Part shown: positions 35,598-37,526 of the stretch, in pieces | How the letters are laid out: every line of letters starts with the position of its first letter | Numbering within the stretch: position 1 is the stretch's first letter | Assembly (NCBI RefSeq): GCF_002584535.1 | Contig: NZ_NUOT01000034.1 | Coordinates: 22,981-86,980, forward strand | Direction of reading: 5' to 3' | Source of the DNA: Bacillus cereus | GTDB lineage: Bacteria > Bacillota > Bacilli > Bacillales > Bacillaceae_G | Length of the DNA: 64,000 nucleotides | Notes under the pieces: generated by a model | Seen by the model: only the letters and a program-made list of their open reading frames with translations | Told to the model about the DNA's origin: nothing | Database searches by the model: none | Position numbers and translations under genes: made by a program

Positions 35598-36155
35598 TTA
35601 CGCTTCTTTTAAATGATGTGTATCTTGAAATGCAGTATCACGCATTGTAGTAAGTGTATATTGATCTTTAACAATTTCATATAAATTATACACTTCTTCA
35701 TTTGCATTAATTTGATCATAAATAGCTTTTCTAGTTTCATTCGCTAGGTTTATATATGGTAGTTTTTCAGCTGCTTTAATCGAACGAATATTCACCTTAC
35801 GAATGCGCATAAAAATTGTTTCAACATCCAATTCATAGAACAGCTCGCTGAAAAACGCATCTTTTGCTAATTTATTATAACCCTGTCCGTGATAAGGTTT
35901 CCCAAGCCATGTGCCAAGAAAACCAGCTTTTTCTTGCACATCAAATAAAGTAATCGTGCCAATAGGGTTTCCCCATTCATCTAAAATTGTGCGTGAAATT
36001 AATTCACCACGCTCTTCAGCTTCTATTGTTTGCTTTGTTAAAAATAAAAATTCTTCGTATGAATAAGCTTTTTGACGCACAAAAGGGAAGACAGCAGGAT
36101 CCACCATCAAATCGTATAGAACGTGGCTGTCGTGTAAGTCGCGTTTTTTTAACAT
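35598..36155 (-). CDS. GNAT-family N-acetyltransferase (RimJ/RimL-like)
   Basis: A 185-residue acetyltransferase of the RimJ/RimL branch, using acetyl-CoA on an unknown amine. The acetyl-CoA loop is seen as LGKPYHGQGYNKLAKDAF, preceded by IGTITLFDV and followed by RKVNIRSIKAAEKL. GAGGAGG precedes the ATG at 36155. The gene has an unusual leader: a promoter, a tRNA-like RNA and a strong terminator lie in order just upstream on the same strand, so its expression may depend on read-through (inference). Confidence 0.85.
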   Translation of the reverse strand: MLKKRDLHDSHVLYDLMVDPAVFPFVRQKAYSYEEFLFLTKQTIEAEERGELISRTILDEWGNPIGTITLFDVQEKAGFLGTWLGKPYHGQGYNKLAKDAFFSELFYELDVETIFMRIRKVNIRSIKAAEKLPYINLANETRKAIYDQINANEEVYNLYEIVKDQYTLTTMRDTAFQDTHHLKEA

Positions 36156-36197
36156 ACTAACTCCTCCTCACATGAGGGTAGCATGACGAAAAAACAC

Positions 36198-36245
36198 CCC
36201 ACCCTCGAAATTTTTATATCAAACTTTAAAAAATTTCGGGGTGGG
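36198..36245 (-). terminator. Terminator formed with the 3' half of the tRNA-like RNA
   Basis: On the minus strand, CCCACCCCGAAATTTTT pairs with AAAAATTTCGAGGGTGGG (17 pairs, one bulged A), followed by GTG and six T (to 36187). The 5' arm is the T-arm and acceptor 3' strand of the tRNA-like fold, so the two structures exclude each other. Confidence 0.85.
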
Positions 36246-36304
36246 AATCGAACCCACTAGAACCAGTCTATAACGCTGGTGGCGCACCATTTGCCTTCCC
36301 CATT
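36234..36304 (-). ncRNA. tRNA-like (pseudo-tRNA) RNA
   Basis: A 71-base cloverleaf-like RNA. The T arm is perfect (GTGGG-TTCGATT-CCCAC, 36257-36241). The D arm is GGC-AAATGGTGC-GCC with the GG pair. The anticodon arm is CCAGC-GTTATAG-ACTGG, with TAT at the anticodon position and one mismatch. The acceptor is poor: AATGGGG against CCCGAAA gives only four pairs, and no CCA follows. A nine-base perfect hairpin ATCAATTTG/CAAATTGAT (36306-36340) lies just before it. It is not a normal translating tRNA. B. cereus strains are known to have a pseudo-tRNA (tRNA-Other); I cannot confirm that this is the same one. Confidence 0.65.
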
Positions 36305-36356
36305 CATCAATTTGAAATGAATATCACGACACAAATTGATTATGGTTTCATTCAGT

Positions 36357-36386
36357 TTATAATCGTATAATACTTTATCTAGTCAA
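36357..36386 (-). promoter_or_regulatory. Sigma-A promoter for the tRNA-like leader
   Basis: On the minus strand, TTGACT (36386-36381), an 18-base spacer and TTATAA (36362-36357); ATTATA with a 17-base spacer is an equal reading. A start near 36350 would place the hairpin, the tRNA-like fold and the terminator in the leader of the acetyltransferase gene. Confidence 0.7.
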
Positions 36387-36395
36387 AAAAATAAA

Positions 36396-37526
36396 CTAGT
36401 TTTTTTTATTTTTTCTATAAATTATTTTTCCATCAATCATAGTTAATACGGGCTTGGCTAAATAATGAAATGGATGATGTGTCCATAACACAAGATCAGC
36501 ATCTTTTCCAGTTTCGATACTTCCAATTCTTTCCTCTAAACGTAGGTTTCGAGCAGGGAGGATTGTAATGCCTTCTAATGCAATTTTTTCATCTAACCCT
36601 TCCCTGACAGCGATGGCTGCACAAACATTTAAATATTGAATGGGAGTATAGGGATGGTCTGTTGTAATGGAAACTTCTATCCCATATTTTGATAAAGTAT
36701 GGTACGTATCCCATGATTTATTTTTTAGTTCAATTTTTGAGCGGCGTGTTAATGTCGGACCAACAGAGATTTTTAAGTTTTGGTTGGCAAGCTCATTTAC
36801 AATGAAGTGTCCTTCCGTACAATGTTCAATGCGTAAATCAAGATTGAATTCTTTTGCAAAGCGAAGAGCGGAAAGAATGTCGTCCGCCCGATGAGCGTGC
36901 ATACGTACTGGGATTTCTCGGCGCAGTGCTTTTAGAATAGGAAGCATTCGAAAATCGGCTTCGTTTCCATAATGTTGTGCTTCGTAGAAAGATTCTCGAA
37001 GCAAGCCCATAATCCCCATACGAGTAATCGATTCTTTTGTGCCATTACTATGAACTCGTTTTGGATTTTCTCCAAATGCAATTTTTAACCCTGCAGGTTC
37101 TTGAATGATCATATGATCGATACAGGTTCCGGCAGTTTTAATTACACATGTTGTCCCGCCAATAATATTTTGGCTTCCAGGCATAACGTGGGCAGTTGTA
37201 ACACCATTTTGAACCGCATCTTGAAAAGCAATATCAAAAGGGTGGATGCCATCTAAAGAACGGATATGTGGTGTTAATACTTCGGATGTTTCATTAGCAT
37301 CATTTCCAGCCCATCCAGTCCCTTCATCGTATAGGCCAAGATGAGTATGCACATCGATAAATCCTGGTAAGAGGTGAAGGGCTCTTGCATCGATAACGGT
37401 CATATCTTGAGTTGGTTCAATATGTGGCTTTATCGCAGCGATTTTATTGTGTTTAACCAATACATCTCCTTGAAATTTAGAAGAAGTAATGGGATATACA
37501 ATGGCTTGCTTAAATAGGGTTTTCAT
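36396..37526 (-). CDS. Amidohydrolase-superfamily metal hydrolase
   Basis: A 376-residue enzyme related to imidazolonepropionase and dihydroorotase-type amidohydrolases. The metal motifs are DVHTHLG (H-x-H near residue 60), MHAHRADD, IEHCTEG and the catalytic aspartate in TTDHPYTP. The end has the family signature DADLVLWTHHPF. The substrate is not known. GAGGT lies before the ATG. It is on the same strand as the tRNA-like leader that begins just after it, but that RNA has its own promoter. Confidence 0.8.
   Translation of the reverse strand: MKTLFKQAIVYPITSSKFQGDVLVKHNKIAAIKPHIEPTQDMTVIDARALHLLPGFIDVHTHLGLYDEGTGWAGNDANETSEVLTPHIRSLDGIHPFDIAFQDAVQNGVTTAHVMPGSQNIIGGTTCVIKTAGTCIDHMIIQEPAGLKIAFGENPKRVHSNGTKESITRMGIMGLLRESFYEAQHYGNEADFRMLPILKALRREIPVRMHAHRADDILSALRFAKEFNLDLRIEHCTEGHFIVNELANQNLKISVGPTLTRRSKIELKNKSWDTYHTLSKYGIEVSITTDHPYTPIQYLNVCAAIAVREGLDEKIALEGITILPARNLRLEERIGSIETGKDADLVLWTHHPFHYLAKPVLTMIDGKIIYRKNKKN

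What the first reader, a model, noticed from the sequence alone, without database searches (positions are those of the whole stretch)
36187..36392. tRNA-like leader that can refold into a terminator in front of an acetyltransferase gene
Seen directly, in order on the minus strand: a sigma-A promoter, a nine-base perfect hairpin, a 71-base tRNA-like fold (perfect T arm, D arm with GG, anticodon arm), then a 17-pair terminator, then a GNAT gene with a strong ribosome site. The 5' arm of the terminator is the T-arm 3' strand plus acceptor 3' strand of the tRNA-like fold, so only one of the two can exist. This looks like an attenuator using a tRNA mimic, or a stand-alone pseudo-tRNA with its own terminator. 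A binding protein, a synthetase or a ribonuclease could favour the cloverleaf and allow read-through. B. cereus-group pseudo-tRNAs are known, but a switch of this kind is not known to me.
Basis: partly seen in the sequence, partly recalled or inferred. Interest (0 to 1): 0.82.

Follow-up and report, generated by a model that had tools for sequence, protein, structure and literature searches.

The report
tRNA-like switch before an acetyltransferase gene
In front of an uncharacterised acetyltransferase gene in many Bacillus-type bacteria lies a highly conserved RNA that folds like part of a tRNA and seems wired to open or close the gene's ribosome-binding site; no family in the RNA library searched describes it.

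Summary
The leader at 36153-36312 (-) has a tRNA-like core (GGGAAGGCAAAUGGUGCGCCACCAG-loop-CUGGUUCUAGUGGGUUCGAUUCCCACCCCGAA) that precedes the same GNAT gene in 80 of 80 best GNAT relatives, once per genome in 19 of 19 genomes of one family, and in 34 of 398 genomes of the class, each time beside the GNAT. Over 94 distinct sequences 99.1% of cells in the four helices pair, with compensatory changes in two arms. No Rfam family describes it; one relative barely reaches the tRNA cut-off.

But a T-run of six after it is found only in the window, of 64 leaders measured. In most relatives the design instead gates the Shine-Dalgarno site: forcing the tRNA-like fold raises its predicted accessibility from 0.26 to 0.57 over 94 leaders, against no mean change in shuffles. 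I read it as a 'folded = ON' cis switch, mainly translational, effector unknown. The yjdF riboswitch works similarly but is a separate family. In the window itself the translational effect is not predicted, so transcription attenuation stays open there.

The parts
36306..36340 (-). upstream hairpin, nine perfect pairs (ATCAATTTG / CAAATTGAT)
   Evidence: a hairpin just upstream is common but not universal: mean z -0.62 over 93 distinct upstream stretches, 35 of 93 below -1, against 13 of 93 in the control stretch further upstream
36235..36302 (-). tRNA-like domain: short acceptor-side helix, D arm with GG, variable-loop arm, T arm with canonical T-loop
   Evidence: model R1 scores 88.9 bits here (the window is among the sequences R1 was built from); pair counts over 94 distinct sequences
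36241..36257 (-). T arm GTGGG-TTCGATT-CCCAC; its 3' strand is the shared strand of the switch
   Evidence: invariant in the first 70 leaders; G-C to A-U in 10 of 94 and U-A to C-G in 2 of 94
36198..36245 (-). competing long hairpin (17 pairs, one bulge, 13-base loop); excludes the T arm and acceptor-side helix
   Evidence: its AU part differs on both sides in L050, L119 and L127 (by eye)
36189..36194 (-). run of six T after the long hairpin: makes it terminator-like in the window
   Evidence: sequence; longest of 64 leaders measured
36201..36206 (-). strand GAGGGT, inferred able to pair with ACCCTC 36179-36174 when the tRNA-like domain is folded
   Evidence: sequence; corresponding helices appear in the forced folds of L072, L092 and L137; the window's own forced fold does not use it
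36163..36178 (-). SD region: CCCTCA (36178-36173) facing the SD GAGGAGG (36169-36163), a local SD-masking hairpin
   Evidence: sequence; SD accessibility 0.20 free and 0.23 with the tRNA-like fold forced
35598..36155 (-). GNAT acetyltransferase gene (185 aa, Acetyltransf_3, PF13302)
   Evidence: AlphaFold2 model, mean pLDDT 91.3, nearest solved folds SpeG, FdhC and RimJ types; profile hit to the MccE acetyltransferase E 1.5e-6
36396..37526 (-). upstream amidohydrolase gene (neighbour, context only)
   Evidence: its cluster is found in 69 of 80 named loci, nearly always 1-2 ORFs upstream on the same strand

Best explanation
The leader is a cis-acting RNA switch whose sensing part is a tRNA-elbow mimic (T arm plus D arm on a short acceptor-side helix, with a free third arm). 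During transcription the tRNA-like domain can form first. If something holds it, its T-arm 3' strand stays locked, the downstream strand (GGGUGG region) is free to capture the anti-SD strand, and the Shine-Dalgarno site is open: ON. If not, the T-arm and acceptor 3' strands are invaded by the downstream arm to make the long hairpin, the anti-SD strand falls back on the SD, and translation is low: OFF. In lineages without the GGGUGG arm the T-arm 3' strand can mask the SD directly (computed for L140). In the window the long hairpin carries a T-run, so there the OFF state may also end transcription. Shown by comparison: conserved tRNA-like fold, link to one GNAT gene, compensatory changes. Shown by computation only: coupling of that fold to SD access. 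Inferred: that the switch operates in cells, and that an effector (small molecule, or a protein that binds tRNA elbows, or the GNAT itself) sets it.
For: Element upstream of the GNAT in 80 of 80 best named relatives; 60 invariant columns among 70 distinct leaders, 49 of them in the tRNA-like domain. 19 of 19 genomes of one family have exactly one copy. 34 strong hits (79-95 bits) in 398 genomes of the class, one per genome, all beside the GNAT; a start codon with the GNAT's opening residues, found by pattern, lies downstream in 94 of 94 distinct leaders. 94 sequences: 99.1% of cells paired, 4 pairs and 21 cells changed on both sides, against means of 1.3 and 1.8 in shuffles. T-arm G-C to A-U occurs in 10 of 30 leaders without the GGGUGG arm and 0 of 64 with it, as expected if that arm freezes the shared strand. 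Isolated domain: 79 of 94 have all four helices (at most one pair missing in each) in the minimum-energy fold. Forced tRNA-like fold: SD accessibility 0.258 to 0.575; up by more than 0.1 in 65 of 94, down in 2; 12 shuffles of the middle part: mean change 0.001, replicate means -0.048 to 0.028, 17% up and 18% down. The rise is there with the arm (64 leaders, 0.29) and without it (30, 0.37). L137 reaches 30.7 bits on the Rfam tRNA model, cut-off 29, with permissive filters.
Against: No expression, probing or ligand data. Computed energies favour the free (mostly OFF) ensemble by 8.6 kcal/mol on average, range 1.7 to 20.7, and ignore tertiary contacts, so ON needs help. In the window forcing the fold changes SD access only from 0.20 to 0.23. 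The three most divergent leaders (L170, L194, L195) average 0.05 and their acceptor-side pairs fail as modelled. The leaders are related: by downstream identity of 70% they form 7 groups, 82 in one; 6 of 7 rise. A4 was fitted to the structure, and in the first 54 sequences only 1 pair and 2 cells co-varied. 67 of 101 genomes of the class with the GNAT show no strong R1 match (filters lose weak ones), so the gene does not need this element.
Confidence: 0.72

Rival explanations
1. Transcription attenuator: the long hairpin plus U-run is an intrinsic terminator and the tRNA-like fold is the antiterminator; SD masking is secondary.
For: In the window the hairpin is followed directly by TGTTTTTT and outcompetes the cloverleaf; SD access in the window hardly depends on the tRNA-like fold.
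Against: Of 64 measured leaders only the window has 6 T after the arm, one has 5, nine have 4. The window's T-run can instead pair with the A-run of the first codons. Close relatives of the window's organism that could show whether the T-run is kept did not turn up (best GNAT identity 83%).
Confidence: 0.3
2. Protein control or autoregulation: a protein (the GNAT itself, or a tRNA-elbow enzyme such as a T-loop modifier, RNase P or RNase Z) binds the tRNA mimic and sets the switch; no small molecule is involved. This is a version of the best explanation, not an alternative to its switch.
For: Every copy examined lies before this one gene, as autoregulatory leaders do; the D-loop GG and the T-loop are all but invariant in 94 sequences (one T-loop G to A).
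Against: No binding data. The domain lacks the full acceptor stem and CCA end that several such enzymes need (recalled).
Confidence: 0.35
3. A pseudo-tRNA small RNA released by processing, with its own terminator, acting elsewhere; proximity to the GNAT is incidental.
For: tRNA-like shape; a published pseudo-tRNA, tRNA-Other, is part of a larger RNA in B. cereus (PMC3399842, passages); ARAGORN calls a tRNA at the element in 2 of 28 relatives' loci scanned.
Against: Every copy examined stands before the same gene, long U-runs are rare in the 64 leaders measured, the downstream sequence is tuned to the SD, and the anticodon-type loop varies in length and sequence.
Confidence: 0.07
4. Fossil tRNA 3' end, such as an integrase attachment site, without a present role in RNA.
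For: The T arm is the best preserved tRNA part.
Against: Conservation of all arms and compensatory changes; no match in the phage records, and none to an exact pattern in viral contigs; same upstream neighbour in 69 of 80 loci.
Confidence: 0.02

Closest known systems
yjdF (azaaromatic) riboswitch, Rfam RF01764
   Same: 5' leader of an orphan gene in Firmicutes; translational ON switch; tRNA-like fold reported by SAXS with D-loop and T-loop contact; OFF state pairs the T-arm-like strand with the ribosome-binding site (PMC9142559, text parts 1-3 of 5 read)
   Different: different sequence and layout: RF01764 does not hit this element and R1 does not hit yjdF loci; different gene; here the T-loop is the exact tRNA form. 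A yjdF crystal structure describes stems radiating from a core with a T-loop-like fold (PMC10987639, part 1 of 2 read)
tRNA-Other of B. cereus ATCC 14579
   Same: tRNA-like element inside a larger regulatory RNA in a Bacillus (PMC3399842, passages)
   Different: Trp anticodon, pathogenicity-island flank, thioesterase ORF upstream, terminator 523 nt downstream, reported only in the B. cereus group; here no anticodon, GNAT directly downstream, many genera. Sequences not compared
T-box leaders (recalled)
   Same: 5' leaders with alternative hairpins, tRNA elbow involved
   Different: T-boxes bind tRNA; this one imitates it. No Rfam T-box match in the window leader
E. coli thrS operator (recalled)
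   Same: tRNA mimic in an mRNA leader that controls translation
   Different: imitates an anticodon arm bound by the synthetase; here the elbow is kept and the anticodon-type loop is free to vary

Membership tests
yjdF / azaaromatic riboswitch (RF01764) | match to the RF01764 covariance model | tested here: not met
   not among matches to E 10 in the window leader nor to E 5 in 9 relatives' loci; reverse search with R1 over 12 RF01764 loci (11 over its cut-off) finds only one 8-bit piece away from the yjdF match
yjdF / azaaromatic riboswitch (RF01764) | binding of azaaromatic compounds | not testable with these tools
   needs in-line probing or binding assays
functional tRNA gene | seven-pair acceptor stem and seven-base anticodon loop | tested here: not met
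   three-pair acceptor-side helix and 9-base loop in the window; loop sequence and length vary; ARAGORN calls none in the window, but one at the element in 2 of 28 relatives' loci
functional tRNA gene | score over the Rfam tRNA cut-off | tested here: inconclusive
   not in the window nor at the element in 20 relatives with default filters; L137 30.7 bits over 29 with permissive filters but no match with default filters
intrinsic-terminator attenuator | GC-rich hairpin followed by a U-run, competing with an alternative fold | tested here: inconclusive
   present in the window's sequence, not listed by the scan (loop limit); T6 in 1 and T5 in 1 of 64 leaders; termination itself not testable
T-box riboswitch | match to the Rfam T-box model | tested here: not met
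   no match at gathering score in the window nor among matches to E 10 at the leader
riboswitch | conserved aptamer with alternative folds that gate expression | tested here: inconclusive
   conserved domain and alternative folds found by comparison and computation; gating of expression not shown
riboswitch | direct binding of a small molecule or ion | not testable with these tools
   no ligand known
B. cereus tRNA-Other | CCA anticodon and its published setting | tested here: not met
   loop of the window is CGTTATAGA; setting in the passages of PMC3399842 differs; the published sequence itself was not compared

The most novel reading that the evidence does not exclude
An undescribed class of ligand- or protein-gated mRNA switch whose sensor is a genuine tRNA elbow, closer to tRNA than yjdF, so that a tRNA-derived fold directly reports some state of translation or tRNA metabolism to a GNAT enzyme across Bacillaceae and neighbouring families.
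Probability: 0.5. Interest if true: 0.9.

Novelty: new variant of a known kind. Interest (0 to 1): 0.8.

Why it matters
It would be a second, independent case of a tRNA-like fold used as an mRNA switch, with a textbook T-loop and compensatory changes, in easily handled bacteria. It gives a concrete sequence set for finding what such a switch senses and what the GNAT does, and it warns that some copies may be annotated as tRNA genes.

Tried and rejected
Transcription attenuation as the general mechanism: the T-run is not kept in the 64 leaders measured. Pseudo-tRNA, tRNA gene, T-box and yjdF membership: see the membership tests. Mobile or phage origin: no hit to an exact pattern in viral contigs, none in phage records, one plasmid-labelled record (a 690-kb Cytobacillus replicon). 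Other genes under the element: none found. All 34 strong matches stand beside the GNAT; of its 21 weak matches (31-36 bits) 14 were checked and all 14 overlap tRNA genes. Phylum sample: 4 strong matches in 299 genomes, all in genomes already seen; the two other matches (42 bits, one genome) overlap tRNA-Asn genes. GNAT leaders without a strong R1 match: 20 of 67 were fetched; no match with default filters, weak ones with filters off. A paper search for a B. subtilis gene name (ykwB, my guess for an orthologue) listed only unrelated plant and fungal papers. Literature: searches listed no paper that I could recognise as describing this element; only open-licence PubMed Central papers are searchable and most listed papers were not opened. 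GNAT substrate: not resolved by fold or profile.

Full report
What was checked. The minus strand around 36153-36412 was read. The cloverleaf is only partly tRNA: three acceptor-side pairs, a three-pair D arm, and an arm with a nine-base loop in place of the anticodon arm. It is the minimum-energy fold of the isolated stretch, though not unusually stable (z -0.67). With the downstream sequence the 17-pair long hairpin wins. ARAGORN and Rfam at gathering score find nothing in the window. Permissive Rfam matches at the leader are all far below their cut-offs: miRNA-like hits to the long hairpin, and a 12.8-bit match of the T arm to the 3' end of tmRNA (E 0.0024).

Conservation. A search for the GNAT in genome contigs found 301 relatives, of which the best 80 are kept. 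All 80 carry the tRNA-like element upstream, in 69 distinct leader sequences. By record title they include Bacillus, Ectobacillus, Neobacillus, Cytobacillus, Mesobacillus, Anoxybacillus, Thermolongibacillus, Rossellomorea, Sutcliffiella, Metabacillus, Evansella and Pseudalkalibacillus. With the window they align with 60 invariant columns, 49 of them in the tRNA-like domain, while the loop of the third arm varies in sequence and length.

Distribution. A covariance model of the domain, R1, was built from 54 sequences including the window. It finds 34 strong matches (79-95 bits, one per genome) in 398 genomes of the class of G004, the genome of the Cytobacillus locus L021. There are 21 further matches at 31-36 bits; 14 were checked and all overlap tRNA genes. 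All 34 strong matches precede the GNAT (30 by score, four read), and all 34 genomes are among those with the GNAT. A GNAT profile (A3) finds the gene (E up to 1e-40) in 101 of the 398 genomes, so 67 have the gene without a strong element; the first look over many genomes loses weak matches. Twenty of those 67 leaders were fetched; R1 finds nothing with default filters. With filters off the best match on the gene's strand is in L233 (11.6 bits, E 0.036), and L232, L234 and L235 give 6.4-6.7 bits (E about 1) at a T-arm-like piece: perhaps decayed copies, not shown. Order-level searches gave 20 of 120 and 45 of 250 genomes at E up to 1e-8 (the two samples overlap). In the phylum sample of 299, four strong matches, all in genomes already seen, plus two tRNA-Asn genes.

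Structure by comparison. I picked 94 distinct domains from the loci then held; 99.1% of cells pair, and four pairs and 21 cells change on both sides, against 1.3 and 1.8 in shuffles; the number of further pair types is less striking, 11 against 9.3, reached by 27 of 500 shuffles. Ten sequences have A-U for G-C in the T arm, two have C-G for U-A, and the third arm has nine such cells. The first 54 sequences (A2) showed only 1 pair and 2 cells, so the support comes from the more distant leaders. The A-U change is found in 10 of 30 leaders that lack the GGGUGG arm and in 0 of 64 that have it, which fits the view that elsewhere the T-arm strand is frozen because it must serve two helices. In the three most divergent domains (L170, L194, L195) the acceptor-side helix does not pair as modelled; by eye it can pair in a longer form with the GAAAUUU strand (my reading, not counted). 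A4 was fitted to the model, and the sequences are related, so these are not independent events.

Coupling to the SD. For each of the 94 leaders I computed SD accessibility free and with the tRNA-like helices enforced. It rises from 0.258 to 0.575; by rounded values the rise exceeds 0.1 in 65 of 94 and the fall exceeds 0.1 in 2. Shuffling the stretch between the domain and the SD, 12 times per leader, gives 0.320 and 0.321; replicate means of the change lie between -0.048 and 0.028, with 17% of cases up and 18% down by more than 0.1. The rise is present with the GGGUGG arm (64 leaders, 0.29) and without it (30 leaders, 0.37). Grouped by downstream identity of 70% there are 7 groups, one of 82; 6 of 7 rise. 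The strands behind this differ by lineage: in the forced folds GAGGGUGG/CUGCCCUC pairs in L072, GGGUGGC/GCUACCC in L092 and GAGGGUG/CACCCUC in L137; by eye L108 can use GGUGGGU/ACCCGCC. In L140, which lacks the arm, the free fold pairs the T-loop and T-arm 3' strand directly with the SD. The window is an exception: 0.20 to 0.23, because in its forced fold the SD stays paired and the T-run pairs with the A-run of the first codons. Its T-run of six is the longest of the 64 leaders measured. So transcription termination may matter in the window while SD control fits most relatives.

The gene. GNAT of the Acetyltransf_3 type, no NCBIfam match, no solved structure by single-sequence search at E 0.001. 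The profile's best solved match is the MccE acetyltransferase (E 1.5e-6), then GCN5-, RimJ/RimL- and SpeG-type entries; the AlphaFold2 model (pLDDT 91.3) resembles SpeG, FdhC and RimJ. The substrate is unknown. A relative of the upstream amidohydrolase is found in 69 of 80 named loci.

Against what is known. The yjdF riboswitch is also a translational ON switch with a reported tRNA-like fold (PMC9142559, parts 1-3 of 5 read). It is not the same family: no cross-match in either direction, and one genome, G058, has both. That paper mentions acetyltransferases among genes under yjdF control; which ones I did not trace. A crystal structure of yjdF (PMC10987639, part 1 of 2 read) shows a T-loop-like fold in a core with radiating stems. 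The 2016 yjdF paper (PMC4793209) was only searched for four terms, without matches. tRNA-Other (PMC3399842, passages) differs in anticodon, setting and spread. Literature searches.

Verdict. A real, widespread tRNA-like cis element, without a family of its own in Rfam 15 and not recognised in the searches above, best read as a folded-is-ON switch for GNAT expression. The fold and its link to the gene are well supported; the switching is supported by computation only; the effector is unknown.

Noticed in passing
L232 275-337, L234 175-248 (-), L235 173-246 (-), L233 119-180 (-): Leaders of the same GNAT in genomes without a strong R1 match give weak R1 alignments (6.4-11.6 bits); L232, L234 and L235 keep a T-arm-like piece (TTGGGTTT[TG]AATTCC) and a GAATTTTAG strand. 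Perhaps a decayed or diverged form of the element.
   Followed up: partly
L237, L238, L239, L246, upstream of the GNAT: Another group of GNAT leaders shares its own conserved stretch (GAAGGCATACCATGCGCGGTTC in L238, L239 and L246; L237 has GGCGGTTCGAAC), so the gene may have lineage-specific leaders.
   Followed up: no
L122 1498-1571, L109 1498-1568: ARAGORN calls the element tRNA-Lys(ctt) and an unnamed tRNA here: an annotation hazard for genome pipelines.
   Followed up: partly
window 36396-37526 and relatives: A relative of this amidohydrolase gene lies near the GNAT in 69 of 80 named loci, nearly always upstream on the same strand; acetylation and deacylation of one metabolite is a possible link.
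   Followed up: partly
L092-L104, between the two arms of the long hairpin: In these 13 loci with the GTGA variant the loop of the long hairpin is expanded while the arms stay recognisable.
   Followed up: no
L194 1466-1639, L196 1458-1630, L163 2694-2868: Rfam S414 (Staphylococcus sRNA 414) matches over its cut-off downstream of the GNAT.
   Followed up: no
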